Source: Lachnospiraceae bacterium | Lineage (GTDB): Bacteria; Bacillota; Clostridia; Lachnospirales; Lachnospiraceae | DNA length: 64,000 nt | Reading direction: 5' to 3' | NCBI GenBank assembly: GCA_024684215.1 | Contig: JAIKXH010000092.1 | Span: forward strand, 1 to 64,000 | In this document: one piece after another, positions 10,553 to 64,000 of the stretch | Layout of the letters: each line of letters starts with the position of its first letter | Numbering within the stretch: the stretch's first letter is position 1 | The notes under the pieces: model-generated | What the model was told of the DNA's origin: nothing | Seen by the model: the letters and a program-made list of their open reading frames with translations, nothing else | Database searches by the model: none | Translations under genes and position numbers: made by a program

Positions 10553-10598
10553 ATTTACGAGATTATTTTGTTAAAGAATTCAGATATATAGAAATCTA

Positions 10599-11107: not shown

Positions 11108-11157
11108 GCTTTTGACCTCCTATTTCCATAAATTATATCATAGTGTCTTAATTTTTA

Positions 11158-11186
11158 TAGACTTTTTTTACATTTTTAGGTATAAT
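11158..11186 (+). promoter_or_regulatory. Promoter of the ATP synthase operon
   Basis: TAGACT (11158-11163) and a perfect TATAAT (11181-11186) are 17 bases apart, with transcription expected to start about 35 bases before atpZ. Confidence 0.6.
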
Positions 11187-11229
11187 TAACTCTATATTTT
11201 TAGGCTGTTTTGGTTCATTCGGGAGAAAG

Positions 11230-12082: not shown

Positions 12083-12120
12083 TACGTGTACTACTATAAA
12101 ACAGGTAAGGAGGTGAAGCT

Positions 12121-12849: not shown

Positions 12850-12864
12850 CAAATACATAACTAG

Positions 12865-13200
<336 letters not shown>

Positions 13201-13249
13201 TAACGAAGAATGTCACGGCAAAACGTGATCAGTTGAAAGGAGAAAACGA

Positions 13250-13789: not shown

Positions 13790-14325
13790 TTTCCAAAACC
13801 TACGGCGAGGCCTTGTTTGAGCTTGCGCACGAGGAAGACAAAGCATCAGAAATGCTTGAGGAAATTCAATCCGTGCGTGAGATACTTGAGTCCAATCCGG
13901 AATTTACGAAGCTGATGCTTCATCCGGGAGTAGCTAAGCAAGATAAGCTGAAAATGGTCGATGAAATATTTAAAGGAAGAGTCAGCGACGAAATTGCGGG
14001 GTTTATCCGCGTGGTTGTTGACAAAGAAAGATTTCGTGACATTGACTCAATCTTTACCTACTTCATTGACAAAGAGAAAGAATTCAGAGGAATAGGTGTG
14101 GCATATGTCACTACACCTAAGGCTCTCGATTTAGAGGGCAAGAGCATGGTCAAAAACAAACTGCTTGAGACTACTGATTACAATACTCTCGAGATGCATT
14201 ACGAAGTTGACCCCACTCTTATAGGTGGTATGGTTATCCGAATAGGAGACCGTGTCGTGGATTCGAGTATCAAGAGCAGATTGAATGATTTGACAAAGGA
14301 ATTATTAGAACTCCAGCTGGGGTAA
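13777..14325 (+). CDS. atpH: ATP synthase F1 subunit delta
   Basis: The 182-residue OSCP/delta protein begins MAKLVSKTYGEALFELA and ends in the conserved DPTLIGGMVIRIGDRVVDSSI motif. It links the b stalk to the alpha-beta head. The start lies inside the 3' end of atpF. Confidence 0.95.
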   Translation: MAKLVSKTYGEALFELAHEEDKASEMLEEIQSVREILESNPEFTKLMLHPGVAKQDKLKMVDEIFKGRVSDEIAGFIRVVVDKERFRDIDSIFTYFIDKEKEFRGIGVAYVTTPKALDLEGKSMVKNKLLETTDYNTLEMHYEVDPTLIGGMVIRIGDRVVDSSIKSRLNDLTKELLELQLG

Positions 14326-15870
<1,545 letters not shown>

Positions 15871-15892
15871 CAAAAATAAGAGGTAATTAACT

Positions 15893-16741
15893 ATGGCATC
15901 AATGCGTGATATTAAACGCCGGAAGTCTAGTATACAGGGAACTCAGCAGATTACCAAAGCCATGAAGCTGGTATCCACCGTAAAGCTTCAAAGAGCGAGA
16001 ACGGCAGCTGAAAAATCCCAATATTACTTTGACAGTATGTACCGGACCGTCAATTCAATATTGTCGCGTGTGGGACATATCGAACACAGATATCTTCGCC
16101 CCGGAGATTCGGAGCGAAAGGCTGTGGTAGTAATAACCTCCAACAGAGGTTTGGCCGGCGGCTATAATTCCAATGTGGTGAAACTGATTACCAGAAATGA
16201 TGCTTTTAAAAAGGAAGACCTAGATATTTATTCTATCGGAAACAAAGGCCGTGAAGCCTTTGCAAGATATGGATACACTATCAAAGAGGACTTGCCGGAA
16301 ATAGTGGAAGATCCCCTTTATTCGGAAGCAAACGAGCTTACAAACAGGCTTTTAAGCAGCTTTGAAAAGGGAGAGGTCGGAGAGATATATCTGGCATACA
16401 CCTTCTTTAAAAATACCGTAAGCCAGGAGCCCAGACTTATAAAGCTTTTGCCCGTTGAGGCTAAGAGCGAGGATGATGCTCAGGCGGTAATGAACTTTGA
16501 ACCTGAAGATATTGAAGCGATTGATATGATCATTCCCAAATATATAAGCAGTCTTATATATGGAGGATTAAAGGAAGCTATCGCAAGTGAAAACGGCGCC
16601 CGTATGCAGGCAATGGATAATGCTACAAGCAATGCCGAGGATATGATAAGTAAGCTTTCACTTCAATACAACAGAGCCCGTCAGGGATCTATAACTCAGG
16701 AGCTTACAGAGATTATCGCAGGCTCGGAAGCAATCGGATAA
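15893..16741 (+). CDS. atpG: ATP synthase F1 subunit gamma
   Basis: The 282-residue central stalk protein begins MASMRDIKRRKSSIQGTQQI and ends with the conserved MDNATSNAEDMISKLSLQYN-type helix and RQGSITQELTEIIAGSEA. It rotates inside the alpha-beta head. Only 22 bases separate it from atpA. Confidence 0.97.
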   Translation: MASMRDIKRRKSSIQGTQQITKAMKLVSTVKLQRARTAAEKSQYYFDSMYRTVNSILSRVGHIEHRYLRPGDSERKAVVVITSNRGLAGGYNSNVVKLITRNDAFKKEDLDIYSIGNKGREAFARYGYTIKEDLPEIVEDPLYSEANELTNRLLSSFEKGEVGEIYLAYTFFKNTVSQEPRLIKLLPVEAKSEDDAQAVMNFEPEDIEAIDMIIPKYISSLIYGGLKEAIASENGARMQAMDNATSNAEDMISKLSLQYNRARQGSITQELTEIIAGSEAIG

Positions 16742-16750
16742 TCAGTTAAT

Positions 16751-16764
16751 GCCGCTTAAGCGGC
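16751..16764. repeat. 14-bp palindrome between atpG and atpD
   Basis: GCCGCTTAAGCGGC is a perfect palindrome in the 39-base gap before atpD. Its 12-base core CCGCTTAAGCGG recurs at 60619-60630. It could form an RNA processing or stability hairpin. Confidence 0.6.
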
Positions 16765-16780
16765 GGAAATGAGGTTATAA

Positions 16781-18181
<1,401 letters not shown>

Positions 18182-18234
18182 TTACGGATTATTTGTTTCG
18201 CATGGTCAAAGATGGGTAACAAAAAGGAGCAAAT

Positions 18235-18752: not shown

Positions 18753-21302
18753 ATGAATTTTGCGACAATCAGAAAAAATTTAATACGTATAGTGGTACTG
18801 ATAGTCGTTTTCATCGCAACGCTTATTGTTGCCTCGAGAATTTTAAACAGAGATATAGATAATATCACTATGGACCTGGAGCCGGCGACGCTCCCTGTTA
18901 TAGACATGGTGCGCGGTGACTTTTTGTACAATAAATTGTATGGATATACCGGCAAAAGAGATGTCACGGAAACGGCGGAAAATCTTACGGTTTTGGGGGA
19001 TGAAAGAAATCTCTCTTTTAGAGTAAAAACTTATGGTAACGAATACGAAAGCATTTTGTATGAAGTAAGAAGCTCTAACGGAGAAAGACTTATAGAGTTC
19101 GGAGAGGTCGAGGACATAAAAAAATCCGGGTATTACCTTACCGCAAATCTTTCTTTTAAAGACCTTCTTACCAAGGATGTTTACTATTCGTTGGAACTTA
19201 CTTTTAACGGACCTGAGGACAAATCTGTATATTTTTATACCAATATTGTATGGGGAGATGATCTTGGCGCAGATGATAAATTATCATTTGCGGAATACTT
19301 CCACGATAAGCTTTTTGACAAGGAAAACGCGAGTGAGATCCGCAAATATATAGAGACAAATTCTTCCCTCAATGACAACTCCACTTTTGCAAGTGTGGAT
19401 ATACATTCAAGCTTGGATCAGATAACCTATGGTGATTTAAAAGTCACTCAGACAGGCGAGCCCGATATTGCGATAAAGGAAATATCGGAGCAGATGGCAG
19501 AGATAACCATTGATTATTTTGCTTTCTCGGGAGATGACGAAAATAAGATATATTACAGACTTACCGAGTATTTCAGAGTCAAAACCGGTAAGGAAAGAAT
19601 GCTGCTTATAGACTACCAGAGAACCATGGAGCAGGTTCCCGATGAAGACAGTTTGTGTGTAAATGATAAGATCGTCCTCGGAATTGCCGACAGGGGAGTG
19701 AATTACTCTGAAAGCGAAGACGGTAACACTGTAGCTTTCGTTTACGGCGGAAGACTCTATTCCTATCAGTCAAAGGAAAATAAACTCACGAGAGTATTTT
19801 CATTTTCCGGTAATGAAGAATTTGATGAGAGAGCTATTCACAGTGCTCACGACATAAAGATTTTAGACATCGAAGAAAGCGGTACTATTAAATTTGCGGT
19901 ATACGGATACATGAACAGCGGCCGCCATGAGGGCGAAGTCGGTATAGAGGTATACAGCTTTGACGGAAAATTAAATACTATAGAGGAACTTATATATCTT
20001 CCCTATGAGAGATCATGGGGAACACTTAAAGCGGAACTTAATACTCTTTTGTATCTTAACCGCGAAGAGCATTTATTCCTTGCTCTCGAGAATAAGGTAT
20101 ATTGCGTGGATTTAAAAAGCAGAAAGTATACTGTCAGAAATGATTTGGGCGGAGATGATACGCTGGTAACAAGCGCAGACCACAGAATACTTATTAGCCG
20201 GAGTGCTTACGAGGAGTCTCAGCTTTCAAAGAGCATAACACTTACAAATCTTAAATCTGAAAAAGACAAAGAAATTGCCGCAACAGAGGGTGACTGTATA
20301 AGGTCGCTCGGATTTATCGGACCTGATGTAATATACGGTATGGCACATATAGAGAATATAAGAAGAGAAAGCTCCGGCAGACTCTTCTTCCCAATGTATA
20401 GTATTGTGATCTGTGACGAGGAAGGTAATCTTATTAAGAAATATGAATATGACGGATATTACGTAGTGTCAGTGGAACTTAACGACAATCAACTTACTCT
20501 GAAAAGAGTATCTATTGACGAAAAGGGTAAAATAAAAGATGAAAAACCTGACTATATAACCGCTGAGGATGTGACGGGCGGTGTAAACGTTACCGATGCA
20601 ACAGCGGTTGTCGATACTTACAAGACATATGTACAGCTTCAGCTTCCCGGTGAGGTAGACAGTGACCTTTTAAAGGTTGCCAGCCCCAAAGAGGTAGTGT
20701 ATGAGGGTGGCCGTGATTTAGCGCTCGAGATCGAAAAAATTGACAGATATACCGTTTATGACGCTTACGGTGTGGCAGATATCTTTAACCTGGCGTCAAA
20801 TGCCATTGAACTTGCAAATGTAAAAGCCGGTTGGGTCTGCGATCAAAACGGGGATATTTTGTGGAAGAGGACGCCGAGAAGTACCAAGAACCAGATAATG
20901 GCTATAGAGGCAGAGGGGTGCGAGACAGATGAAAGTCCCTTGGCTGTTTGCTTGGATGCCATGCTTGCAAATGAAGGTATTATCAGAAATTCTCAGTATC
21001 TTTTGGACGAGGGAAGTTCAGTGCTGCAGATACTGGGTGACAATATGGAAAATTGCAAAATTTTGGATTTGACCGATTGTGAACTTGACATGATGTTATA
21101 CTATGTTAATATTGAAACGCCGGTACTTGTTATGACGGGGGACGAGGACGCATTATTAATAGTCGGCTATAATGATACCAATTCATATATAGTTGCACTT
21201 GATCCAAAGAAGGGTTCTTTGGAAAAAATGGCTTATGATGATGCGGCGGAATTGTTTAAGGACTACGGCAACAATTTCATTACATATATAAAGATGCAGT
21301 AG
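18753..21302 (+). CDS. Large membrane-anchored protein with degenerate C39-like C-terminal domain
   Basis: I do not recognise a named family for this 849-residue protein. It has an N-terminal anchor (residues about 8-28) and a long extracytoplasmic region of mixed beta character, with a propeller-like middle around residues 300-620. Residues about 725-849 resemble a papain-like/C39 peptidase: C733 sits in SPLAVCLDAMLANEG, and LLIVGYNDTNSYIVALDPKKG matches the family's GY and DP motifs. The His expected just before LLIVGY is replaced by Asp, so peptidase activity is doubtful. It follows the atp terminator and precedes murC by 21 bases, so a role in envelope biology is plausible but inferred. 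Confidence 0.6.
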   Translation: MNFATIRKNLIRIVVLIVVFIATLIVASRILNRDIDNITMDLEPATLPVIDMVRGDFLYNKLYGYTGKRDVTETAENLTVLGDERNLSFRVKTYGNEYESILYEVRSSNGERLIEFGEVEDIKKSGYYLTANLSFKDLLTKDVYYSLELTFNGPEDKSVYFYTNIVWGDDLGADDKLSFAEYFHDKLFDKENASEIRKYIETNSSLNDNSTFASVDIHSSLDQITYGDLKVTQTGEPDIAIKEISEQMAEITIDYFAFSGDDENKIYYRLTEYFRVKTGKERMLLIDYQRTMEQVPDEDSLCVNDKIVLGIADRGVNYSESEDGNTVAFVYGGRLYSYQSKENKLTRVFSFSGNEEFDERAIHSAHDIKILDIEESGTIKFAVYGYMNSGRHEGEVGIEVYSFDGKLNTIEELIYLPYERSWGTLKAELNTLLYLNREEHLFLALENKVYCVDLKSRKYTVRNDLGGDDTLVTSADHRILISRSAYEESQLSKSITLTNLKSEKDKEIAATEGDCIRSLGFIGPDVIYGMAHIENIRRESSGRLFFPMYSIVICDEEGNLIKKYEYDGYYVVSVELNDNQLTLKRVSIDEKGKIKDEKPDYITAEDVTGGVNVTDATAVVDTYKTYVQLQLPGEVDSDLLKVASPKEVVYEGGRDLALEIEKIDRYTVYDAYGVADIFNLASNAIELANVKAGWVCDQNGDILWKRTPRSTKNQIMAIEAEGCETDESPLAVCLDAMLANEGIIRNSQYLLDEGSSVLQILGDNMENCKILDLTDCELDMMLYYVNIETPVLVMTGDEDALLIVGYNDTNSYIVALDPKKGSLEKMAYDDAAELFKDYGNNFITYIKMQ

Positions 21303-49763: not shown

Positions 49764-51713
49764 ATGTTGGGAGAAGGACTTGTTTTTACTAATGACAAGT
49801 GCGTCGGTTGCAACAAATGCATCAGTGTTTGCTCAGCCATGGGTGCATGTGTGTCTGAAGACCCCGATGAAAACGGAAAATCAAGAATTGATGTCGACGG
49901 AGACAGATGTATAGCCTGCGGAGCATGCTTCGATGTTTGTATGCACGGCGCAAGAGAGTATCGCGATGATACTGAAAGGTTTTTCGAGGACCTTAAAAAA
50001 GGTGAAAAAATATCGGTTCTTATCGCCCCGGCATTTAAGGCAAATTACCCGAATGAATATGAGAGCGTGCTTGGAGGTCTTAAAGCTTGTGGTGTTAAGA
50101 GGTTTATCAGTGTATCCTTTGGCGCCGATATTACAACTTGGGGGTATATCAACTACATTCAAAAGAACAATTTTCTCGGTGGCATTTCACAGCCATGTCC
50201 TGCAGTAGTCGGTTACATCGAGAGATATATGCCTGAAATCATTCCAAAACTATTCCCCGTACAGAGTCCCATGATGTGTGCCGCCATCTATGCAAAAAAA
50301 GAGATGGGTATCACAGACAAACTGGCTTTTATCAGCCCTTGTATTGCTAAAAAAATGGAAATAGACGATCCGAACAATAAAGGATACATCACATATAATG
50401 TAACCTTTGATCATCTTATGGATTACGTCCGTAAAAACGGAATAAAGGGTGCACCATGCAGCGATGAGATAGAGTATGGACTCGGATCTATATATCCTAC
50501 ACCCGGAGGTTTGAAGGAAAATGTATATTGGCTTCTCGGAGAAAGCGTCTTCATCCGTCAGATTGAAGGCGAAAAGAGAATGTACAATTTCCTTAAGGAG
50601 AACAAAAACAGGATAAATCAAAGCAAGACTCCTTATTTGTTTATCGATGCATTAAACTGTGAAAACGGATGCATTTGCGGTACAGGTACAGATCCAAAAA
50701 TCTCTGAGACCGATGATGCTCTATATGCTCTTTTAAATATCAGGGAGTCGGTTAAAAAGAATGGCAAAAAGGGAGCTTGGGCTAAAAACAATACACCTGA
50801 AAAAAGACTTGCCGCTCTTAATAAGCAGTTCTCCAATCTCAAACTGGAGGATTATTTAAGACATTATACAGATAAGTCGAAGTGCTGTCCTATTAAGGTC
50901 CCGAGCGCGGCAGAGCTTGATCGAATATTCCGTACTATGGGCAAAAATGATGAGGAATCCAGAAGTATAAATTGCTCCTGCTGCGGATATGATACCTGTA
51001 AGGATATGGCCGTTGCAATTTATAACGGCTTTAACCATAAGGATAACTGCGTGCATTACTTAAAGGGCCTTGTTGAGGAAGAAAGAGAAAACGCTCAAAA
51101 GCTCGTCGTTGAGGAAAGAGAGCAGTTAGATTCTCAAAAGCAGGCTCTGTTTGATACAGTAAAGGTAGTCAATGAAAACTTTGATACCTTAAGACAGTCG
51201 ATTGACGAGATGGTCGGCGGTAATGAGATGAATGCCTCTGAAAGCACGGGTATATCTCAGGATGTGGGAAATGTTGAAGAATTCTGTAATATGATGAATG
51301 AATCCATGAACGGAATTCTTGCAGCACTTACAGAACTTCAAAACAGTAACGCAAAGGTTGTGGACATTGCATCACAAACAAACCTTCTTGCGTTAAATGC
51401 GAGCATCGAGGCGGCAAGAGCCGGAGAGGCAGGAAGAGGATTTGCGGTAGTTGCCGATGAAATCAATTCCCTTGCTTCGGATTCAAGAGCTACCGCAGAA
51501 GGCACGGCGGTCAATAACAATGCCATAAAGGTTGCTATTGATGAGATGGTTTTAAATATCAAGAAGCTGCTTGAGATAGTTAACAGTGTAAACACAAGGA
51601 CCCAGAATCTTGCAGCATCCACAGAGGAGATATCCGCATCCACGACCCTTATTTTGGAAACTGTGGATAAGGTAGGCTCTGAAATCGAGAAGCTTGCAAC
51701 TCAGGCAAAGTAA
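49764..51713 (+). CDS. Ferredoxin/[FeFe]-hydrogenase-like sensor fused to chemoreceptor signalling domain
   Basis: The 649-residue protein has no transmembrane segment. In order: two 4Fe-4S clusters ([11 protein letters not shown] and [11 protein letters not shown], residues about 13-60) and a hydrogenase H-cluster domain (about 75-390). The four expected cluster ligands are C145 (QPCPAVV), C193 (SPCIAKK), C299 and C303 (NCENGC). Next come an FeS domain ([11 protein letters not shown], about 405-440), a helical linker and a methyl-accepting signalling hairpin. The hairpin tip, about residues 534-573, includes [20 protein letters not shown]. The hydrogenase part lacks the full-length loops of catalytic enzymes and looks like the sensory groups C/D. 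A hydrogen- or redox-sensing receptor is inferred. A GGDEF gene lies 38 bases downstream. Confidence 0.85.
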
Positions 51714-53161: not shown

Positions 53162-53205
53162 GGTAGAATCGCAGATAGCGAAATAAGCTTTGGAGGAAAA
53201 TGATT

Positions 53206-54429
53206 ATGAAAAAGAAATTACTCTCTGTACTTCTTGCAGGTGTAATGGCACTTTCACTTGCTGCTTGCGGAGCAGGCGGATCAAGTGAGGGCGCAGCATC
53301 TTCAGATGCACTTCCCACAGCTCCCACCGAGGATGGAAGCCTTCAGGGAACTCTTAAGGTAGGTCTTATCGGACCTCTTACCGGAGGAGCAGCTCTTTAC
53401 GGAAACGCTGTTGATAACGGCGCAAAGATTGCCATCGAGGAGATCAACGCAGAAGGCGGCGCTTTCCAGATGGATTATAAGGCACAGGACGATGAGCATG
53501 ACGCAGAGAAATCTGTTAATGCATATAACCAGCTTAAGGACTGGGGCGTACAGGTTATCGTAGGTACCGTTACCACCACTCCTTGTATCGCAGTCAGTGC
53601 AGAAGCAAATACCGATCGTATCTTTATGCTCACTCCTTCAGCATCAGCTCAGGATGTAACCGCAAATAAGGATCAGACCTATCAGCTTTGCTTCTCAGAC
53701 CCTAACCAGGGTTCAGCATCAGCTCAGTATATTTCCGAGAACGGACTCGCTACCAAGGTTGCTATTATTTACAAGAACGACGATGCTTATTCAACCGGAA
53801 TTTATCAGACCTTTAAGGCTAAGGCTGATGAGCTCGGACTTGAGATCGTATCTGAGACCACTTTCATGGACGGAAGCGATAACGACTTTACCGTACAGCT
53901 TACAGATGCAAAGGACAAGGGCGCAGACCTCGTATTCCTTCCCATGTACTATACTCCCGCATCACTCATTCTTTCACAGGCTGATTCAATGGGCTATGCT
54001 CCTACATTCTTTGGTGTAGACGGTATGGACGGTATCCTTGGAATCGAGGGATTCGATACTTCTCTTGCTGAGGGAGTAATACTTCTTACTCCTTTCGCGG
54101 CAGATGCTACCGATGATCTTACAGTTAACTTTGTTACAAAATTCCAGGAAGCATATGGCGAGACTCCTATTCAGTTTGCAGCAGACGGATATGATTGCCC
54201 TAAGGTAATCTATGTAGCTCTTCAGAAGTATGCATCTGAAAACGGTGGACTCAATGTTGATGAGTTATCGGCTTCAGACCTTTGCCGAATTCTTATCTCT
54301 GTTCTTTCAGACTCTTCATTTGCAGTAGACGGTGTTACAGGTCAGAGCATGCAGTGGTCTGCAAACGGAGAAGTTAACAAGGCTCCTAAGGGTATGGTTA
54401 TTAAGGACGGCGTATACGTAGGACTTTAA
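53206..54429 (+). CDS. livJ: Branched-chain amino acid ABC transporter substrate-binding lipoprotein
   Basis: ATG 53206 (MKKKLLSVLLAGVMALSLAACG) is nine bases after GGAGG and gives a lipoprotein signal with the LAAC box; ATG 53200 is possible but too close to the ribosome site. A Gly/Ser/Ala linker leads to a type I periplasmic binding fold (VGLIGPLTGGAALYGNAVDNGAKIA). It captures Leu, Ile, Val or a related compound outside the membrane; the exact ligand cannot be read from sequence. Confidence 0.93.
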   Translation: MKKKLLSVLLAGVMALSLAACGAGGSSEGAASSDALPTAPTEDGSLQGTLKVGLIGPLTGGAALYGNAVDNGAKIAIEEINAEGGAFQMDYKAQDDEHDAEKSVNAYNQLKDWGVQVIVGTVTTTPCIAVSAEANTDRIFMLTPSASAQDVTANKDQTYQLCFSDPNQGSASAQYISENGLATKVAIIYKNDDAYSTGIYQTFKAKADELGLEIVSETTFMDGSDNDFTVQLTDAKDKGADLVFLPMYYTPASLILSQADSMGYAPTFFGVDGMDGILGIEGFDTSLAEGVILLTPFAADATDDLTVNFVTKFQEAYGETPIQFAADGYDCPKVIYVALQKYASENGGLNVDELSASDLCRILISVLSDSSFAVDGVTGQSMQWSANGEVNKAPKGMVIKDGVYVGL

Positions 54430-54462
54430 TCCATACTGATTATTATACTTGAAAATAATTAG

Positions 54463-54531
54463 TCGGGGCTGTCATCGCGGCGGCCCCGGTTATTTACTTT
54501 AAGGGGAATTTAAGTATTTCCTTTAAAGTAA
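54463..54531 (+). repeat. Two consecutive hairpins between livJ and livH
   Basis: CGGGGC/GCCCCG (about 54463-54487) is followed by TACTTTAAG and its partner CTTTAAAGTA (54496-54531). Neither has a long T run, so they may stabilise the livJ message or partly terminate it, giving more binding protein than permease. Confidence 0.6.
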
Positions 54532-54580
54532 ATAAATTTTGTAAGCTGCGATATTAGATTATTTATCGAGAGGGAACAAT

Positions 54581-55453
54581 ATGTTAAATTATCTGATCAG
54601 TGGAATAAGCCTGGGCAGTGTTTATGCAATAATTGCTCTTGGCTATACAATGGTTTATGGAATTGCGAAGATGCTTAATTTCGCGCACGGAGATGTAATT
54701 ATGGTCGGAGGATATGCGGCGTTTTGTGCGTCTACATATCTTGGATGGCCCATACCTCTTTGCATACTTTTTTCAATGATGATATGTACAATTTTAGGTA
54801 TTGTTATTGAAAAGCTTGCTTATAAGCCTCTTCGAAATGCTACAAGCCTTGCAGTACTTATTACCGCAATCGGAGTATCATATTTCCTCCAGAATATTGC
54901 ACTTCTTATCTGGACATCAAATCCCAAGGCATTTCCCAATATGGCTAATTTTATTCCGGCTATCAGCCTTGGAGATACAACCATATCATCCACAACAATC
55001 ATTACCATAATAGCCAGTGTGATAATCATGATAGGACTTACCCTATTTACAGGTAAAACAAAGATGGGCAAGGCTATGCGTGCCGTGTCCGAGGATAAGG
55101 GAGCGGCTCAGCTTATGGGAATCAACGTAAATGCCACGATTTCCATTACGTTTGCAATTGGTTCGGGACTTGCTGCAATAGCGGGCGTGCTGCTTTGCTC
55201 TGCATATCCTACGCTTATGCCCACCACCGGTTCTATGCCCGGTATCAAGGCGTTTACCGCTGCGGTACTCGGTGGAATCGGCTCAATCCCCGGAGCAATG
55301 CTCGGAGGAATATTACTCGGAATTTTAGAGAAATTTGCTCAGGCGTACATTTCAACTCAGCTTTCCGATGCAATTGTTTTTGCGGCGCTTATTGTGGTGC
55401 TGCTTGTAAAACCTACCGGTCTTCTTGGCAAGAAGATTACGGAGAAGGTCTAA
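54581..55453 (+). CDS. livH: Branched-chain amino acid ABC permease LivH
   Basis: The 290-residue polytopic protein begins MLNYLISGISLGSVYAIIALGYTMVYGIAKMLNFAHGD-type, the LivH start, and contains GKTKMGKAMRAVSEDKGAAQLMGIN, the coupling loop. It forms half of the membrane channel. GAGAGGG precedes the ATG. Confidence 0.96.
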   Translation: MLNYLISGISLGSVYAIIALGYTMVYGIAKMLNFAHGDVIMVGGYAAFCASTYLGWPIPLCILFSMMICTILGIVIEKLAYKPLRNATSLAVLITAIGVSYFLQNIALLIWTSNPKAFPNMANFIPAISLGDTTISSTTIITIIASVIIMIGLTLFTGKTKMGKAMRAVSEDKGAAQLMGINVNATISITFAIGSGLAAIAGVLLCSAYPTLMPTTGSMPGIKAFTAAVLGGIGSIPGAMLGGILLGILEKFAQAYISTQLSDAIVFAALIVVLLVKPTGLLGKKITEKV

Positions 55454-55471
55454 GGAAGGAGGTTGATTGAA

Positions 55472-56551
55472 ATGGGAAAAAAGGTTAACTTCCTCGGAAA
55501 AACGAATAAGAATTCTTTAAAAGGACTTATAAATTTTGGGATAATAATCGTGTTTTACGCGTTTATTACCATACTTAAGGGGGCAGGCGGACTTACAAAT
55601 GCACTTGAAGGTCAGCTTATACCTATATGCGCATACATTATAATGGCTCTTTCGCTTAACCTTGTTGTAGGTATCTCCGGAGAGCTTTCACTCGGACATG
55701 CCGGATTTATGAGTGTAGGTGCTTTTACCGGTGTTATAGTCGCGGGCGCGATGAAGTATAACGGAGTAAATGCAAACGCCCCCAGACTTATCGTTGCGAT
55801 TGTTGTAGGTGCGATTCTTGCCGCTATAGCTGGAATTTTGATAGGTATCCCCGTACTGCGCCTTCGCGGAGACTATCTTGCGATTGTTACACTTGCTTTT
55901 GGTGAGATTATAAAAAATGTACTCAACTGCTTATATGTCGGTATTGATAATGCGGGATTACATTTCTCTGTTACGGATGAAGCCCATATGGATATGGCTG
56001 CGGGAGGAACAACACTTGTAAGAGGACCTATGGGTGCTGTCGGAGTCGCTAAGGCTTCTTCATTTATAGCAGGCATTATTCTTATACTTATTGTGCTTTT
56101 TGTGATCCAGAACCTTGTAAACAGCCGCACAGGAAGAGCAATCATGGCCATCCGTGACAATAGAATAGCGGCGGAGGCTTCCGGAATAAATGTTACAAAA
56201 TACAAGATGATCGCTTTTGTTACATCAGCGGGAATAGCCGGAGCGGCAGGCGCACTTTATGCGCTTAATTACTCGACTATCGTTCCCAAGAAATTTGATT
56301 TTAATACATCAATTCTTGTACTTGTATTCGTTGTATTGGGCGGTATCGGTAATATGACGGGATCTATTATAGCTGCGGCGGTTCTTACAGTTCTTCCCGA
56401 ACTGTTCAGACAGTTCCAGGATTACCGTATGCTGGTATATGCAATAGTGCTTATACTTGTAATGATTGCCACCAACAATGAAAAGATAAAAGCTTTGTGG
56501 AAGCGATTTTCCGCGATTTTCTCAAAGAAAGGGGGCAACGTAAATGAGTAA
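55472..56551 (+). CDS. livM: Branched-chain amino acid ABC permease LivM
   Basis: ATG 55472 (MGKKVNFLGKTNKNS) is nine bases after GGAGG; a TTG at 55463 would abut it. The 359-residue polytopic protein has the LivM elements GISGELSLGHAGFMSVGAF and NSRTGRAIMAIRDNRIAAEASGIN. It overlaps livG by eight bases. Confidence 0.96.
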   Translation: MGKKVNFLGKTNKNSLKGLINFGIIIVFYAFITILKGAGGLTNALEGQLIPICAYIIMALSLNLVVGISGELSLGHAGFMSVGAFTGVIVAGAMKYNGVNANAPRLIVAIVVGAILAAIAGILIGIPVLRLRGDYLAIVTLAFGEIIKNVLNCLYVGIDNAGLHFSVTDEAHMDMAAGGTTLVRGPMGAVGVAKASSFIAGIILILIVLFVIQNLVNSRTGRAIMAIRDNRIAAEASGINVTKYKMIAFVTSAGIAGAAGALYALNYSTIVPKKFDFNTSILVLVFVVLGGIGNMTGSIIAAAVLTVLPELFRQFQDYRMLVYAIVLILVMIATNNEKIKALWKRFSAIFSKKGGNVNE

Positions 56552-57401
56552 TAATCCTAATGAGACAAAATACGTTGAAGTTCCCGGACCCGGAAAAATT
56601 CCCGAGAGAGATAAGGGCAAGCGCCCGGTACTTGAGGCAAGCCATCTCGGAATAGATTTTGGCGGGCTTACCGCAGTTGACGAGTTCAATATCGCCATAG
56701 GTGCAACGGAGATCGGCGGACTTATAGGGCCGAACGGTGCAGGTAAGACTACTGTATTCAACCTTCTTACCAAGGTTTACCAGCCTACAAGAGGCGTTAT
56801 CATGCTTGACGGTAAAGATACTCACGGTATGAATACCACCCAGGCAAACCAGGCGGGTATTGCCCGTACCTTCCAGAATATCAGACTTTTTGATAAGTTG
56901 ACGGTTGAGGAAAATGTTAAGATAGGACTTCACAATTCGATAGGATATCACCTTCCTTCGGCTGTTTTAAGACTTCCGAGATATTGGAAGGAGGAGAAGA
57001 AAGCTCACGAGAGAGCGTTAGAGCTCCTTGATATTTTTGATATGGCAGACTTAGCGGATGTACGTTCCGCTTCACTTCCCTACGGTGCTCAGAGAAGACT
57101 TGAGATTGTAAGAGCTCTTGCCACCAATCCTAAGATATTGCTTTTGGATGAGCCTGCTGCCGGAATGAACCCCTCAGAGACTGAGGAACTTATGAACAAT
57201 ATCAGAAAGATCCGCGATACATTTAATATTGCAGTCCTTCTCATAGAGCATGATATGAACCTTGTAATGGGTATCTGTGAGAATATCATAGTACTCAATT
57301 TCGGTAAGATTATCGCCAAAGGAACTCCCATAGAGATTCAGAATAATCCCAAGGTTATCGAAGCATACCTTGGAAATTCCGGCGAAGAAGGGGAGGAATA
57401 A
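56544..57401 (+). CDS. livG: Branched-chain amino acid ABC ATPase LivG
   Basis: The 285-residue ATPase has Walker A GPNGAGKTT, Q-loop FQNIRLF, Walker B LLLDEPAAGMNP and the extended LivG C terminus. The usual LSGGQ signature is changed to LPYGAQRR, as common in LivG. An N-terminal stretch of about 30 residues precedes the ABC fold. It energises transport together with LivF. Confidence 0.96.
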   Translation: MSNNPNETKYVEVPGPGKIPERDKGKRPVLEASHLGIDFGGLTAVDEFNIAIGATEIGGLIGPNGAGKTTVFNLLTKVYQPTRGVIMLDGKDTHGMNTTQANQAGIARTFQNIRLFDKLTVEENVKIGLHNSIGYHLPSAVLRLPRYWKEEKKAHERALELLDIFDMADLADVRSASLPYGAQRRLEIVRALATNPKILLLDEPAAGMNPSETEELMNNIRKIRDTFNIAVLLIEHDMNLVMGICENIIVLNFGKIIAKGTPIEIQNNPKVIEAYLGNSGEEGEE

Positions 57402-57403
57402 TA

Positions 57404-58117
57404 ATGGCTGATACACTTCTTAAAGTAGAGGATTTAAATGTTTATTACGGAAGCATCCATGCGATAAAAGGTATTTCCTTTGAAGTAAAAGAGGGAGAGA
57501 TCGTTACTCTTATAGGAGCAAACGGTGCAGGAAAATCCACCACCCTCAATACTGTTGCGGGACTTTTAAAGCCCAGAACCGGAAATATAGAGTTTTGCTC
57601 AAAAAGCCTTGTGGGTGTACCGGCACATAAAATAATAAAAGACGGACTTGCGCTTTGCCCCGAGGGAAGAAGAGTGTTTTTACAGCTTTCCGTAAAGGAA
57701 AACCTTGAGATGGGTGCTTATACAAGACCTGATTCGGAACTCGCCGAATCAATCGAAAAGGTATACGAGCTCTTCCCGAGATTAAAGGAGAGATACAAGC
57801 AGGTTGCGGGTACGCTTTCCGGCGGTGAGCAGCAGATGCTTGCAATGGGAAGAGCGCTTATGAGTAAGCCTCGTCTTATGATGCTTGACGAGCCCTCAAT
57901 GGGACTTGCACCTATTTTGGTTGACCAGATTTTTGATATAATCAAGGACCTTCATAAATCGGGAACAACTATTCTTCTTGTAGAACAGAATGCCAGAAAA
58001 GCTCTTGCCATCGCAGACAGAGCGTACGTACTTGAAACGGGAAAGATAGTTAATACCGGAACCGGAAGCGAACTTTTACATGATGACAGTGTAAGAAAAG
58101 CATATCTCGGCGGATGA
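57404..58117 (+). CDS. livF: Branched-chain amino acid ABC ATPase LivF
   Basis: The 237-residue ATPase has Walker A GANGAGKST, signature LSGGEQQMLAMGRALM and Walker B LMMLDEPSMGLAP. It starts two bases after livG. Last gene of the operon. Confidence 0.97.
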   Translation: MADTLLKVEDLNVYYGSIHAIKGISFEVKEGEIVTLIGANGAGKSTTLNTVAGLLKPRTGNIEFCSKSLVGVPAHKIIKDGLALCPEGRRVFLQLSVKENLEMGAYTRPDSELAESIEKVYELFPRLKERYKQVAGTLSGGEQQMLAMGRALMSKPRLMMLDEPSMGLAPILVDQIFDIIKDLHKSGTTILLVEQNARKALAIADRAYVLETGKIVNTGTGSELLHDDSVRKAYLGG

Positions 58118-59220: not shown

Positions 59221-59964
59221 ATGAAGATTTTGCTGTTAAACGGAAGCCTCAGAGGGGGCAGAAGTTCATCACTAAAGGTTGCCCATGCTTTTATAGACGG
59301 CATGATGGAAGTCCTTCCCGATGCGGAACTTACCGAGGTAGCTTTAAAAGATAAAAAAATTGAACATTGCATGGGATGTCTTTGCTGCTGGAAAAATGAT
59401 AAGGGCAAATGTGTTATCCATGATGATATGGATGAACTGAGGGATCTGGTGATGGCGAGTGACGTTATCATCGAGAGCTTTCCTCTTTATTTTTTCGGCC
59501 AGCCGTCTAAAATGAAGGCTTTTGTGGACAGAATGATTTCCTATGTATCCGAGTATCGCGGAGTGGGAGGCAACGAAGAGAGCGGAAGTTTTCTTCATAA
59601 AATGCGTTATCCGGAGCTTATGAAAAAGAAGCTTGTGCTTGTCTCGAGCTGCGGCTACGAAAAGACAGAAGGCTGTTACGGTCCCATAAAGCAGCAGTAT
59701 GATATTATATGCGGCGAGGGTAATTATACACTTATTACATGTGCTCAGGGCGGTATGATTGCCGAGGAAACGTTGCAGTCAAAGGTTGAAAAGTATTTAG
59801 TGAGATTTACCGAGGCAGGCAGAGAATTTGCCGAAAAAGGAAAGGTCAGCGATGAGACGCTGGAAAAGCTCGCTGTTCCGATGCTTGGACATAATACATT
59901 TGAGAGAATCATAAATCTCAACTGGGACGACCCGAATGTCGGTCCTTATGGCAGAAAGAGTTAA
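59221..59964 (+). CDS. Iron-sulfur flavoprotein-like NAD(P)H-dependent reductase
   Basis: The 247-residue protein has the flavodoxin-like FMN-binding start MKILLLNGSLRGGRSSSLKVA and a Cys cluster HCMGCLCCWKNDKGKC (about residues 49-64). In iron-sulfur flavoproteins such a cluster holds a 4Fe-4S centre, and IIESFPLYFFGQPSKMKAF matches the FMN-site region. The C-terminal third is unassigned. It is two bases from the acyltransferase gene and heads the acyl carrier/ketosynthase operon. It may reduce a product of that pathway or simply travel with it. Confidence 0.75.
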   Translation: MKILLLNGSLRGGRSSSLKVAHAFIDGMMEVLPDAELTEVALKDKKIEHCMGCLCCWKNDKGKCVIHDDMDELRDLVMASDVIIESFPLYFFGQPSKMKAFVDRMISYVSEYRGVGGNEESGSFLHKMRYPELMKKKLVLVSSCGYEKTEGCYGPIKQQYDIICGEGNYTLITCAQGGMIAEETLQSKVEKYLVRFTEAGREFAEKGKVSDETLEKLAVPMLGHNTFERIINLNWDDPNVGPYGRKS

Positions 59965-59966
59965 TA

Positions 59967-60608
59967 ATGTCTTTTTTTAACGCTGTTTTAAAAGGAATTG
60001 CAAAGTTTTTATTTTGGGCTGCCTATCCGGTGCTGAGAGTCATATATCCCATGAAATTTCATTGGGAGGACAAGGCGCTTACGGAAAAGGCTTTATCCGG
60101 AAGTTGTGTCGTTTTCTCAAACCATCTGGGATACGTAGAGGGGCTTTATATGACAAGGCTTCTCAAAAAGTATCGTGTATGGACTTTTGTTGGCAAGGAT
60201 TGGTATGAAAAAAAGCCGATTAATTGGCTCTTCAGAAATCTTCCTTACATCTCGATAGACAGAAAGAGCGGACTTGATACACAGTGGCTCGACAGTACAA
60301 AGGAAATTATGGCAGGAGGCTCTTCCATATATATTTTGCCGGAAGGACATACAAGCCCGGCGGGTAGCATGGATACTTTCAAACCCGGATTTTTGGTCCT
60401 TGCAAAACAGACCGGGGCAACCCCGGTACCTGTATTTATCAGCAGAAAGATTAAGCCTTTCAGGCTTACACATCTTGTTATAGGAAAGCCGTTGGAACTA
60501 GATCTCAATGAGAAGGGAAGACCTTCACTGGTACTAAAAAAGTACTGTGAGGAATGTAAAAATTATGTCGGGGAGCTGGGCGAAAAGCTTGGCAGAGGGG
60601 AAGTGTAA
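59967..60608 (+). CDS. PlsC-type lysophospholipid/acyl acyltransferase
   Basis: The 213-residue protein has an N-terminal hydrophobic segment and the acyltransferase motifs: NHLGYVE (N52-E58) in place of the usual NHx4D, FRNLPYISIDRKSG and LPEGHTSPAGSMDTFKPG. The His is kept; Glu replaces the catalytic Asp partner at residue 58. It would transfer an acyl group from ACP or CoA to an alcohol acceptor. In this operon it may attach the product of the ketosynthase to a lipid. Confidence 0.85.
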   Translation: MSFFNAVLKGIAKFLFWAAYPVLRVIYPMKFHWEDKALTEKALSGSCVVFSNHLGYVEGLYMTRLLKKYRVWTFVGKDWYEKKPINWLFRNLPYISIDRKSGLDTQWLDSTKEIMAGGSSIYILPEGHTSPAGSMDTFKPGFLVLAKQTGATPVPVFISRKIKPFRLTHLVIGKPLELDLNEKGRPSLVLKKYCEECKNYVGELGEKLGRGEV

Positions 60609-60618
60609 ATGCTTATGA

Positions 60619-60630
60619 CCGCTTAAGCGG
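60619..60630. repeat. Palindrome CCGCTTAAGCGG, second occurrence
   Basis: This 12-base palindrome, identical to the core at 16752-16763, lies in the gap between the acyltransferase and acyl carrier protein genes. A related CCGCTTTAGCGG is at 61021-61032. Confidence 0.6.
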
Positions 60631-60701
60631 ATTCATATAAATAAGGATATTTATCTTTGATAAATCAATCCATAGACTTATTATACGAAAGGAATTAAAA
60701 A

Positions 60702-60950
60702 ATGAACGAGAAAGAACTTGAAGTAGCAGCTAAGATCAAGAGCATGGTTTCTGAGAACCTTAATATTCCCGAGGAAGAGCTTGATTATGAGATTCCTCTT
60801 TTCGGTGACGGTATCGGACTTGATTCCGTAGATTCACTTGAGATTATCGCATGCATCGACAATGAGTTTGGTGTAGTAATGACCGGTGTTCCCAAGGAGC
60901 ACTTCTACAACGTTACCAGCCTTACAAAGTATGTTGTAGAGCATATGTAA
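60702..60950 (+). CDS. Acyl carrier protein
   Basis: The 82-residue acidic protein has the phosphopantetheine site GIGLDSVDSLEII (Ser in DSVD) and the normal four-helix ACP length. It is probably dedicated to the ketosynthase gene that follows and not the general fatty acid ACP. AAAGGAA precedes its ATG. Confidence 0.93.
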   Translation: MNEKELEVAAKIKSMVSENLNIPEEELDYEIPLFGDGIGLDSVDSLEIIACIDNEFGVVMTGVPKEHFYNVTSLTKYVVEHM

Positions 60951-60961
60951 TATCAAGTAAT

Positions 60962-61003
60962 AAATGGTGGCTTTACGTGTTTTTTGCACTAAAGCCACCA
61001 TTT
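60962..61003 (+). repeat. Strong intercistronic hairpin after the ACP gene
   Basis: AAATGGTGGCTTT (60962-60974) pairs perfectly with AAAGCCACCATTT (60991-61003). There is no T run after it, so partial termination or message protection, raising ACP levels over the following gene, is likely. Confidence 0.7.
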
Positions 61004-61129
61004 AAGACGCATATTCAAAACCGCTTTAGCGGTTGTTAATTAAGATGATTATTCCACTGCAACCGGAGCCCTGGCGGTAAACCGGTTTATAGTTGTGTTT
61101 ATAAATATTTAAGTTAAGGAGCAAACCAA

Positions 61130-63508
61130 ATGAACAAAAACATCAATACACGTTGCGTAGTTACCGGACTCGGTATGATAAACGCAATCGGTAACAGCGT
61201 AGATGAATGTTGGAACAACGCTCTTATCGGTAAGGAAGGTATAGACGTAGTAAAATCTGTAAACGCAGATGATTGCTATGCCAATCTCGGAGCTGAAGTT
61301 GATTGTGCCGAGCTCGATAAGTATGAGGGTGTAGACAGAGCTTCAAAGCTTTGCCTCAAGGCTTCTGACGAAGCATTTAAGGATGCCGGAATCGATATGG
61401 CAAATGAGGACGCCACCAGATTTGGCGTTATTATGGGAAGCTGTGTCGGCGGTGTTGTCAGCATCGAAAATTATGTTGTAGGCGGTGAAAAGACCGAAGA
61501 CATCAGAAAAATGACTATTTCTCCTATTGCAAACCATGTTGCTAACAGAGTTGGTGCAGGTGGAGTTATTTCAAACGTAGGTAATGCATGTGCAGCCGGA
61601 AGTATCAGCGTAGCTTATGCTTGTGAGCTAATTCGCGCAGGCGTAGCAGACATGTTTATCGTAGGCGGTGCAGATGCTTTTGCGGCTGTTCCTTTTGCGG
61701 GATTCCATGCCCTTCACGCACTTTCCGAAGGACCTTGCTCACCTTTCAATCACTCTAACGGAATTACTTTGGGCGAGGGCGCCGGAGCTATCGTCGTAGA
61801 GTCTTACGAGCACGCTAAAAAGAGAAACGCAAAGATATATTGTGATGTATTGGCAGCAGGCGTAAGCAGTGATGCACATCATATCACTGCACCCAGACCT
61901 GACGGAATCGGCCAGATGTACGCTATCCGTACTGCTATCGCAAATTCGGGACTAAAGCCTGAGAATATCGGATATGTAAATGCACACGGAACAGGAACCG
62001 CTAAAAATGATGAAGCAGAGTTTCTTTCACTTCATGCAATTTTTGATGATGTAAATGACAATCTTTCCGTAAGCTCAACAAAGGCTATGGTAGGACACTG
62101 CCTCGGAGCAGCAGGCGCCATTGAAGCCGTATATGCCATCAAGGCACTTACCACAGATATTATTCCTCCAACCATCGGTTATACTGATGAGGATCTTGAG
62201 ATGCTTAAAGAGAAGGCAGGAAAGATTGATTTCATGCCCAACGTAAAGAAGGAGAAAAAGCTTGATTACGTTATGAGCAACTCCTTTGCATTCGGCGGAA
62301 GCAATGCTTCAATCATCTTCTCAAAGGGTGAAGGAAGTGTAGCTGAGACCGCAAACGATGAGCCCATCTATATCACGGGCATGGGAATCGTAAGCCCTCT
62401 TGGAAACGGTGTATCAAATTATATCGAGAAAGTAAAAGCAGGAGAGACCATCGAAGGAAATTCCGCTTTTGCGGAGACTACCAAGGAAGATTACGATAAG
62501 TACGATGTAAAGATGGCATTTTATCGTAAGCTTGATAAGCTTTCTCTTATGCAGGTTGTATCCGGACTTGAAGCCTTAGAGAGCGCCGGAGTTGAAATAT
62601 CGGACGACAAGGCAGAGGATTTCGGTATGATTATCGGTACTGATGACGGTCCTCTTACCACCGTATATAAATTCCAGGAGAATATCAGTACCAACGGAAC
62701 CAAGAGCGGTTCTGCATTTAACTTCCCTAATACCGTTTATAATGCAGCAGGCGGTTATCTTTCAATTAAAACCAATATGCGCGGCGTAAACGTAACTGTA
62801 ACCAATGGTGCTCAGTCCGGTATGAGTTCGCTTTGCTACGCTTATAACGAGATTCGTCAGAATCATGCTAAGGTAATGCTCGCAACCGGTACCGATGAGA
62901 ACAGTGAGGTTATGGAGAAGCTTTACAAACAGCTTGGCGCGGTAGCGGATTCAAAGGCTGTCCTCTACGGAAATACCGGAATGGCTATGTCAGACGGAAG
63001 TACCACTGTTGTACTTGAGAGTGCTGAGAGTGCTAATGCCAGAAATGCAAAGAAATACGCTCAGGTTTGCGGATACGGTATGACTCATGCAATTACCGAG
63101 TACGGCGAGGTAAAGGGTACAGAAAAGGGACTCGAAGATGCTATCGCTATAGCACTTAAGGATGCAGGAATCTCTGCTTCCGATATTGACGCCGTATACG
63201 GATTCGGCAACGGAGAAACAGATGTAGACAATATCGAAAAGAATGTTTACGGAAAGCTTTTTGATTCAAAGATGCCCGTACATAATGTAAAAGCTTATGT
63301 CGGAGACAGCCGCAGCGCGGCAGCAGCACTTTCTATCGCCACTGCAGCACTTACACTTAGCGGTGAGCTTGGAAATGAGCAGAAGGCATACTTCTTTGGA
63401 GATACTGTTACCGAAGGAAAAGCAGATACAGCTTCTTATAATTACGTACTTGCAACAGCAGGTTCCGAGGGCGGTTCCTATTGCGCAGTTGTACTTAAGA
63501 AGGCTTAA
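61130..63508 (+). CDS. Fused ketosynthase + chain-length-factor-like protein
   Basis: The 792-residue protein contains two complete thiolase-fold ketosynthase units. Unit one (about 1-405) is active by sequence: C154 in GNACAAGS, His in NAHGTGTAKND and His in VGHCLGAAG. Unit two (about 415-792, from PIYITGMGIVSPLGNG) has Q562 in TNGAQSGMS instead of Cys. Both His residues are lost: FGNGETD stands where HGTGT should be, and VGDSRSAAAA where GH should be. A Cys/Gln pair of KS and dead KS is the hallmark of KS-alpha and chain-length factor in type II polyketide and aryl polyene systems, where they are separate proteins. It should extend acyl chains on the neighbouring ACP. Product unknown. Confidence 0.9.
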   Translation: MNKNINTRCVVTGLGMINAIGNSVDECWNNALIGKEGIDVVKSVNADDCYANLGAEVDCAELDKYEGVDRASKLCLKASDEAFKDAGIDMANEDATRFGVIMGSCVGGVVSIENYVVGGEKTEDIRKMTISPIANHVANRVGAGGVISNVGNACAAGSISVAYACELIRAGVADMFIVGGADAFAAVPFAGFHALHALSEGPCSPFNHSNGITLGEGAGAIVVESYEHAKKRNAKIYCDVLAAGVSSDAHHITAPRPDGIGQMYAIRTAIANSGLKPENIGYVNAHGTGTAKNDEAEFLSLHAIFDDVNDNLSVSSTKAMVGHCLGAAGAIEAVYAIKALTTDIIPPTIGYTDEDLEMLKEKAGKIDFMPNVKKEKKLDYVMSNSFAFGGSNASIIFSKGEGSVAETANDEPIYITGMGIVSPLGNGVSNYIEKVKAGETIEGNSAFAETTKEDYDKYDVKMAFYRKLDKLSLMQVVSGLEALESAGVEISDDKAEDFGMIIGTDDGPLTTVYKFQENISTNGTKSGSAFNFPNTVYNAAGGYLSIKTNMRGVNVTVTNGAQSGMSSLCYAYNEIRQNHAKVMLATGTDENSEVMEKLYKQLGAVADSKAVLYGNTGMAMSDGSTTVVLESAESANARNAKKYAQVCGYGMTHAITEYGEVKGTEKGLEDAIAIALKDAGISASDIDAVYGFGNGETDVDNIEKNVYGKLFDSKMPVHNVKAYVGDSRSAAAALSIATAALTLSGELGNEQKAYFFGDTVTEGKADTASYNYVLATAGSEGGSYCAVVLKKA

Positions 63509-63537
63509 TTCTTCGTACTTATGAAATAATAAACGCC

Positions 63538-63570
63538 GGTGTGGGCGAATATTATATAAGCACCCGCACC
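63538..63570 (+). repeat. Intercistronic hairpin between ketosynthase and fabG
   Basis: GGTGTGGG (63538-63545) pairs with CCCGCACC (63563-63570) with one G-U pair. No T run follows. It parallels the hairpin after the ACP gene. Confidence 0.55.
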
Positions 63571-63608
63571 TACCGTTAAATAAATTCACAACACGAAAGG
63601 AAATACAC

Positions 63609-64000
63609 ATGGAGAACAATCAGGATGCAAAGGTGGCACTTGTAACAGGTGCGTCACGTGGTATAGGAAGAGCATGTGCAATTGCTCTCGGTAAGGCAGG
63701 ATACAAAGTAGGAGTTAACTACAATTCCAATGAAGCTGCCGCACAGGAAGTTGTTAAGGCTATTGAGGATGCCGGAAGCGAAGCTATCGCCATTAAGGCA
63801 AATGTTTCCGTTCTTAAGGAAGTACAGGATATGATGCGTACTTTAGTTAAGACATATGGCAAGATAGATCTTCTTGTAAATAATGCCGGAATCGTTAAGG
63901 ATGAGTACGTTATGATGATGAACCCTGATACCATAGATCAGTGTCTTAATCTTAACATCAAAGGATATCTTTACAGCTCACAGCAGGCAGCGGTTAAGAT
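63609..64000 (+). CDS. fabG: 3-oxoacyl-ACP reductase (FabG-like SDR), cut by window edge
   Basis: About 130 residues are visible from ATG 63609 behind AAAGGAAA. VALVTGASRGIGRACAIALG is the NADP-binding Rossmann start and LLVNNAGIVKD is the NNAG motif. The Ser-Tyr-Lys catalytic part lies beyond the edge. It should reduce the 3-keto group made by the fused ketosynthase, so the operon can make reduced or unsaturated chains. More genes of the pathway probably follow to the right. Confidence 0.93.
   Translation, partial: MENNQDAKVALVTGASRGIGRACAIALGKAGYKVGVNYNSNEAAAQEVVKAIEDAGSEAIAIKANVSVLKEVQDMMRTLVKTYGKIDLLVNNAGIVKDEYVMMMNPDTIDQCLNLNIKGYLYSSQQAAVK

What the first reader, a model, noticed from the sequence alone, without database searches (positions are those of the whole stretch)
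59221..64000. Candidate type II polyketide/polyene-like operon with a one-chain KS-CLF fusion
The gene at 61130-63508 joins an active ketosynthase (C154 and both catalytic His present) to a second ketosynthase fold with Gln at the nucleophile (Q562) and both His lost. In known type II PKS and aryl polyene pathways the KS and chain-length factor are separate subunits with this Cys/Gln pairing. Here they are covalently tied, next to a dedicated ACP, FabG, a PlsC-type acyltransferase and an iron-sulfur flavoprotein-like gene. The locus has the minimal machinery to build and lipid-attach a special chain in an anaerobic Firmicute. I do not know a described product for this arrangement.
Basis: partly seen in the sequence, partly recalled or inferred. 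Interest (0 to 1): 0.85.

Follow-up and report, generated by a model that had tools for sequence, protein, structure and literature searches.

The report
Fused-ketosynthase acyl-chain operon in gut anaerobes
A gut bacterium carries a compact operon, related to pigment-making enzymes, whose central enzyme is two ketosynthase folds joined in one chain; in several related species it is the only ketosynthase found in the draft genome, so it may make their membrane chains or a special lipid.

Summary
The fusion is real: a 792-aa ORF (61130-63508), KS half with C154/H286/H323, second KS fold without catalytic residues. One detail is off: Ala561, not Gln562, aligns with the Cys. The operon continues past the window as FabG, FabZ, FabD and an AccD-AccA fusion. 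The fusion occurs in 9 of 31 same-genus genomes, in 14 named Lachnospiraceae loci, 8 of them the same contigs, and on Lachnospira eligens megaplasmids. Trees put its KS and FabG with distant fused clusters of Firmicutes that resemble granadaene clusters, away from FabF, so 'polyene-like' is supported. One-chain KS-CLFs are known (PfaC). In 6 of 9 same-genus carriers no other ketosynthase gene was found; three tested carriers have their only FabD here, and 8 of 8 tested lack biotin carboxylase, though carriers G071 and G096 have it. The operon flavoprotein's nearest PDB sequence is a flavone ene-reductase. Best reading: a polyene-synthase relative that builds an acyl chain for membrane lipid, beside or instead of ordinary fatty-acid synthesis. 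Product, degree of reduction and malonyl-CoA source are inferred. New variant of a known kind.

The parts
59221..59964 (+). Flavodoxin-fold flavoprotein (Flavodoxin_2/FMN_red), CX2CX2CX7C motif; candidate ene-reductase of the pathway
   Evidence: Pfam; best PDB sequence relative 7D38 flavone reductase, E 1.8e-9; model fold matches azo- and quinone reductases as well; found in other carriers
59967..60608 (+). PlsC-family acyltransferase; first motif HX4E in this genus, HX4D in the other carriers aligned
   Evidence: PF01553; motifs
60702..60950 (+). Acyl carrier protein, GLDSVDS site
   Evidence: PF00550; best NCBIfam model PRK09184 (40.9 bits, below its cut-off 70), the model that one of two E. 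coli aryl-polyene ACPs passes; site conserved
61130..62341 (+). Ketosynthase half of the fusion, C154/H286/H323
62342..63505 (+). Chain-length-factor-like half: full KS fold, catalytic residues lost, Ala561 at the Cys column, Gln562 beside it (stop codon to 63508)
63609..64000 (+). FabG-type 3-ketoacyl-ACP reductase, cut by the window end (runs to contig base 64358); outside the window follow FabZ 64355-64798, FabD 64888-65844, AccD-AccA fusion 65920-67563 and a terminator-like hairpin 67604-67632

Best explanation
The operon encodes an acyl-chain synthase that shares ancestry with one-chain KS-CLF polyene synthases. FabD loads malonyl units on the operon ACP. The KS half condenses; the inactive half is held beside it as a chain-length factor, so that one chain supplies the pair that is two proteins in type II PKS. 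FabG and FabZ reduce and dehydrate each round. The operon flavoprotein, related to an ene-reductase, removes some or all double bonds. The chain is passed to the PlsC-family enzyme (or to PlsX where plsX lies alongside) and enters membrane glycerolipid. In species without FabF the operon is the only ketosynthase system detected and so makes whatever acyl chains the cell builds de novo. Shown: gene content, conservation, ancestry, gene losses in draft genomes. Inferred: pairing of the halves, ene-reduction, lipid attachment, product.
For: Most of the operon core recurs in carriers of 55-93% KS-CLF identity. KS, CLF and FabG each group with distant fused loci; KS plus FabF rejected, p-AU 0.009. 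FabD occurs only in this operon in G000, G014 and G008, and so does their only strong AccA-type match, while non-carriers G012, G027 and G007 have both near FabF. 6 of 9 same-genus carriers, and G071, G354, G355, show no other ketosynthase gene. G071 keeps FabK beside a FabZ, so chains of its only detected ketosynthase are probably reduced. L. eligens ATCC 27750 has plsX, accD, an accA-like frame and the flavoprotein near the fusion. Patatin genes sit beside the acyltransferase in L066, L067, L068. The flavoprotein was not found in the four distant fused loci. Foldseek's best match to the two-domain model is the PfaC KS-CLF.
Against: No product is known. All flanking genes are of fatty-acid type, so polyene, unsaturated or saturated cannot be told from sequence. 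The whole ORF passes the cut-off of one FabF-type model (PRK07314, 457.3 against 387) and nearly that of TIGR03150. The KS-CLF model is poor (mean pLDDT 58). The flavoprotein fold matches azo- and quinone reductases as well as flavone reductase, and flavone reductase does not use NAD(P)H directly. The own genome keeps FabF and FabK elsewhere and has 7 PF01553 matches. No PlsC homologue was found in the L. eligens stretch. 11 of 31 same-genus genomes have no match to the KS-CLF query, so species of this genus may live on outside fatty acids. The same-genus carriers are drafts, 72-94% complete.
Confidence: 0.55

Rival explanations
1. A conjugated polyene lipid pathway: no double bond is removed and a polyenyl chain is attached to a lipid, as in aryl-polyene or granadaene-type pathways. 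The flavoprotein does something else.
For: KS, CLF and FabG ancestry with distant fused clusters; no FabK in G014, G029, G009, G173 and only a weak 24% match in G006; no FabI-like SDR among the PF13561 matches (E up to 1e-10) of G014, G173, G009, G029; G353 keeps an ordinary fab cluster and also a short KS-CLF module followed by a PPTase; an AMP-binding ligase lies beside the module in G071 (L066); the E. coli aryl-polyene cluster also has an acyltransferase of this kind.
Against: A relative of an ene-reductase is kept in the operon and was not found in the four distant fused loci; G071 has FabK and no other ketosynthase; no exporter, starter ligase or sugar transferase was identified in the own operon.
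Confidence: 0.25
2. An ordinary fatty-acid synthase in which a FabF-like gene was duplicated and fused; the second half is a decayed copy with no chain-length role.
For: All flanking genes are standard fab/acc genes; the ORF scores 457.3 against PRK07314 (cut-off 387) and 485.4 against TIGR03150 fabF (cut-off 493.75).
Against: KS plus FabF clade rejected; the second half is kept at full length with an NGxQ(S/A)G motif throughout the Lachnospiraceae fusions and groups with the CLF halves of distant fusions (97/94; unresolved when five long rows are included).
Confidence: 0.1
3. The route to unsaturated fatty acids in these Clostridia: the KS-CLF branch makes and elongates enoyl chains.
For: No dedicated enzyme was known in Clostridia in 2009 (PMC2700279, passages); the operon FabZ forms its own clade.
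Confidence: 0.08

Closest known systems
Granadaene-type (cyl) and L. reuteri fun/pks polyene clusters of Firmicutes
   Same: Single long KS gene with FabD, FabG, ACP, FabZ. Fused loci that resemble them (G042, G074, Priestia plasmid) share KS and CLF clades with this operon, and FabG of G042, L. plantarum and Priestia loci joins its FabG. The label 'cyl-type' rests on gene functions given in PMC6985545 (passages); no streptococcal gene was compared.
   Different: This operon has the flavoprotein, PlsC and AccDA; no GcvT-like gene was found in L005, unlike L045, L070 and L136. 29-34% identity over the fusion.
PfaC KS-CLF didomain of polyunsaturated fatty acid synthase (PDB 6riw)
   Same: Active KS and CLF in one chain; best Foldseek match of the whole model.
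   Different: PfaC is part of a megasynthase (recalled); here the other activities are separate proteins; 18% identity and a low-confidence model.
Aryl polyene KS-CLF ApeO-ApeC
   Same: KS half falls in a clade with E. coli ApeO (ApeO a long branch); ACP nearest to the same model as one aryl-polyene ACP; acyltransferase, ACP, FabG and dehydratase in the E. coli cluster.
   Different: ApeO-ApeC is a heterodimer and ApeC about half size (PMC8358021, passages); no starter ligase identified here.
Primary type II fatty acid synthesis (FabF/FabH/FabK) of Lachnospiraceae
   Same: Same activities FabD, FabG, FabZ, Acc; the only FabD of three carriers lies here.
   Different: KS is not in the FabF clade; no FabH or FabK in the operon; FabG and FabZ form their own clades.

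Membership tests
Canonical type II PKS KS-CLF | KS with Cys-His-His paired with a KS fold that lost them | tested here: met
Canonical type II PKS KS-CLF | Gln at the nucleophile column of the CLF | tested here: not met
   Ala561 in the column, Gln562 next to it; the Streptomyces CLF has Gln in the column
Canonical type II PKS KS-CLF | Two separate subunits | tested here: not met
   one ORF
Canonical type II PKS KS-CLF | KS grouping with an actinobacterial KS alpha | tested here: not met
   StrepKSa falls on the FabF side (98/98)
Granadaene-type (cyl-like) fused KS cluster | KS, CLF and FabG in a clade with such clusters | tested here: met
   against loci that resemble cyl by gene content; the CLF clade appears only after long rows were dropped (unresolved)
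Granadaene-type (cyl-like) fused KS cluster | GcvT-like gene beside the KS | tested here: not met
   no match among the ORFs of L005
Granadaene-type (cyl-like) fused KS cluster | Exporter beside the KS | tested here: inconclusive
   none identified in the operon; an ABC transporter set of branched-chain amino acid import type (by reading, not scanned) lies upstream at 53200-58117
Granadaene-type (cyl-like) fused KS cluster | Polyene product | not testable with these tools
   no chemistry
PUFA synthase PfaC | KS and CLF in one chain | tested here: met
PUFA synthase PfaC | Part of a multidomain megasynthase | tested here: not met
   792-aa protein with the two KS folds only; other activities in separate ORFs
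Aryl polyene cluster | KS grouping with ApeO | tested here: met
   97/92 together with the distant fused KSs; ApeO itself sits with those (95/78)
Aryl polyene cluster | Starter ligase in the operon | tested here: not met
   none among the operon genes
Primary FAS II | KS in the FabF clade | tested here: not met
   p-AU 0.009; but one FabF-type HMM is passed
Primary FAS II | A known enoyl-ACP reductase available in the carriers | tested here: inconclusive
   FabK in G000, G008, G016, G071, G096, G077, G160; none convincing in G014, G006, G029, G009, G173; no FabI-like SDR in 4 genomes; FabV not tested

The most novel reading that the evidence does not exclude
A polyene-type KS-CLF has replaced FabF and FabH as the only fatty-acid ketosynthase of several gut and rumen Lachnospiraceae, a flavodoxin-type ene-reductase has replaced FabK, and malonyl-CoA is made without biotin carboxylase, AccDA taking its carboxyl group from the biotin carrier of an oxaloacetate/methylmalonyl-CoA decarboxylase.
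Probability: 0.22. Interest if true: 0.9.

Novelty: new variant of a known kind. Interest (0 to 1): 0.62.

Why it matters
It links polyene-type enzymes to the lipid metabolism of gut and rumen anaerobes. If the operon is the sole chain maker in species without detectable FabF, FabH, FabK and biotin carboxylase, those bacteria use an undescribed fatty-acid synthase, perhaps with ATP-free malonyl-CoA supply. If instead it makes a special chain, it is an uncharacterised membrane lipid found across several Lachnospiraceae genera. A named, sequenced strain, Lachnospira eligens ATCC 27750, carries a relative of it, so the question can be tested.

Tried and rejected
Structure of the fusion: the AlphaFold2 model from 14 sequences was poor (mean pLDDT 58); only the overall Foldseek match is used. 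Flavoprotein model: mean pLDDT 67.2, fold generic. The first tree left the CLF relations unresolved; five long rows (CLF_B_Lplant, EcApeC_CLF, KS_B_Lplant, KS_Serratia, G042c60_CLF2) were dropped for, 59 of 64 rows kept. FabH loss as the key to the fusion was rejected: 26 of 31 same-genus genomes lack a PF08541 match, 7 of 9 carriers and 19 of 22 non-carriers. That the operon PlsC is the cell's only one was rejected (7 PF01553 matches in G000). Ten literature searches listed no paper whose title or shown abstract is on this operon; the library holds open-licence papers only. Papers seen as passages: PMC10132072, PMC12144888, PMC8241843, PMC2700279, PMC6498181, PMC12134224, PMC6985545, PMC3199775, PMC7862272, PMC8358021; no paper was read whole. 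Celluxanthenes come from an iterative type I PKS and are not this system.

Full report
Observation. The ORF at 61130-63508 encodes 792 aa with two full ketosynthase folds. The KS half has C154, H286, H323; the second half lacks all three. Aligned with FabF, ApeO and a Streptomyces CLF, the Cys column holds Ala561, and the conserved Gln562 is its neighbour. In the Lachnospiraceae fusions the motif is NGxQ(S/A)G with x varying (A, N, S, M, T); the distant fusions L045 and L070 have no Gln there.

The operon. The window is bases 1-64000 of a 138288-base contig of a 2.79 Mb draft genome. Past its end follow FabG (63609-64358), FabZ (64355-64798), FabD (64888-65844) and an AccD-AccA fusion (65920-67563), then a terminator-like hairpin (67604-67632, a consensus match only) and a GH28 gene on the other strand. 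Before the fusion lie the flavoprotein, the PlsC-family acyltransferase and the ACP. A second set on contig C136 has ACP, FabK, FabG, FabF, FabZ and an AMP ligase; no FabD, FabH or Acc gene was seen there before the contig ends.

Distribution. Of 31 same-genus genomes (own included, within the 59), 9 carry the fusion, 11 have only single ketosynthase matches and 11 have none. Of 299 family genomes, drawn at about one per genus, 7 show a CLF match in a frame over 700 aa among the matches listed, the list being capped (G000, G173, G071, G096, G077, G160, G074); G074 is of the distant type. One, G41 (L062), is not titled as a MAG and so presumably an isolate. Two L. eligens megaplasmids carry it; the ATCC 27750 locus has ACP, fusion (54.8% identity), FabG, FabZ, FabD, AccD, an AccA-like frame missing from the gene table, flavoprotein and PlsX, but no PlsC match. 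The core order flavoprotein-PlsC-ACP-fusion-FabG-FabZ-FabD-AccDA recurs. G353 keeps an ordinary cluster with AccD, AccA, FabH, FabK, FabD, FabG, FabF, FabZ, and its fusion module lacks FabD and AccDA but is followed by a PPTase. A second group of fused loci occurs in G042, G074, a L. plantarum plasmid and Priestia megaterium plasmids; GcvT-like genes were found in L045, L070 and L136, annotated transporters in L131 and L136.

Ancestry. With five long rows left out, the KS halves of 14 Lachnospiraceae fusions, three distant fusions and ApeO form one clade (97/92) and the CLF halves of both fused groups another (97/94); FabF, FabB, ApeR and the Streptomyces rows form a third (98/98). Holding the Lachnospiraceae KS with FabF costs 48.7 log-likelihood units, p-AU 0.009. 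With all 64 rows the KS clade stands (98/96) and the CLF relation is open. FabG of the operon joins FabG of distant fused loci (99/97); FabZ forms its own clade, its relation to theirs unresolved. The ACP is nearer to the model passed by one E. coli aryl-polyene ACP, but under its cut-off. Against this, the ORF passes one FabF-type HMM, PRK07314.

Gene losses. FabD: one match each in G000, G014, G008, all in this operon; non-carriers G012, G027, G007 have one near FabF (G012 a second elsewhere); G010, 93% complete, has none; the distant-type carrier G042 has two. AccA-type: the same picture, apart from weak matches, in the own genome to a decarboxylase subunit. Ketosynthase census of 24 genomes: besides the fusion only a weak match, probably thiolase (not scanned), in G014, G006, G029, G005, G013, G009 and G071; no other match in G354 and G355; a further ketosynthase in G000, G008, G016, G173, G096, G077, G160, G074, G352, G353, G356, G357. 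FabH (PF08541): in 2 of 9 same-genus carriers (G008, G016); not tested in G071, G173, G354, G355. FabK: none in G014, G029, G009, G173 and a weak 24% match in G006; present in G000, G008, G016, G071, G096, G077, G160, G042 and three non-carriers; G005 and G013 not tested. No FabI-like SDR in the four genomes searched. Biotin carboxylase (PF02785): absent in the 8 same-genus carriers tested (G005 not tested) and in G173; present in carriers G071 and G096, in G042 and in 3 of 3 non-carriers; it rang in 13 of 14 control genomes. G008 and G016 keep FabH, FabF and FabK and still lack it. If completeness is read as the chance of seeing a gene, missing a present ketosynthase in all six is about 1e-5, and missing AccC in all eight about 7e-8; this assumes independence. 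The own genome has an oxaloacetate decarboxylase-type set with its own biotin carrier, a possible carboxyl donor for AccDA; nothing here shows that it is used. PF02436 of that set also occurs in the six non-carriers tested, so it is not special to carriers. Absence of biotin carboxylase in Thermotogales is in print (PMC3199775, passages).

The flavoprotein. Sequence search gives one clear PDB relative, flavone reductase of Flavonifractor plautii (7D38, E 1.8e-9, residues 1-143), an ene-reductase that does not use NAD(P)H directly (PMC7862272, passages). The model's fold matches azoreductases first and flavone reductase fourth. It was not found in the four distant fused loci. Among Lachnospiraceae loci it is missing from L041/L053, L067 and L069, each cut by a contig end on one side of the fusion, and is split into two frames in L060. 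It is the best candidate for a missing enoyl reductase, not a shown one.

Reading. Ancestry shared with polyene-type synthases, an ACP and acyltransferase in the operon, and patatin genes in three relatives point to chains for membrane lipid. Genomes with no other detected ketosynthase say the operon can stand alone; G071, with FabK and FabZ but no FabF, says its chains can probably be reduced; ketosynthase-free members of the genus warn that outside fatty acids may suffice for bulk membrane. I therefore commit to a lipid-chain synthase and leave saturated versus polyene open, with the odds given.

Noticed in passing
L088 5046-10569 (own genome contig C9): The 8 same-genus carriers tested and G173 lack a biotin carboxylase match while keeping AccDA; an oxaloacetate/methylmalonyl-CoA decarboxylase set with a biotin carrier is present in the own genome, hinting at malonyl-CoA by transcarboxylation.
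   Followed up: partly
genomes G003, G004, G010, G011, G018-G024: 11 of 31 same-genus genomes have no match to the ketosynthase query; G010 (93% complete) also lacks FabD, AccA-type and FabH matches, suggesting fatty-acid auxotrophy in the genus.
   Followed up: partly
window 49764-51713: Iron-only hydrogenase and ferredoxin domains fused to a chemoreceptor signalling domain, a possible hydrogen or redox sensor.
   Followed up: no
window 18753-21302: 849-aa ORF with no Pfam match, in the stretch after an ATP synthase alpha/beta-type gene.
   Followed up: no
L046 (G042:C60) 4800-18188: Three KS and CLF-like pairs, each as two separate genes, in one cluster of another family of the order.
   Followed up: partly
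L102 (G012:C1) 4561-16379: Second FabD, FabH-like, AccC-like and AccB-like genes in a cluster of a non-carrier, apparently another biosynthetic cluster.
   Followed up: no
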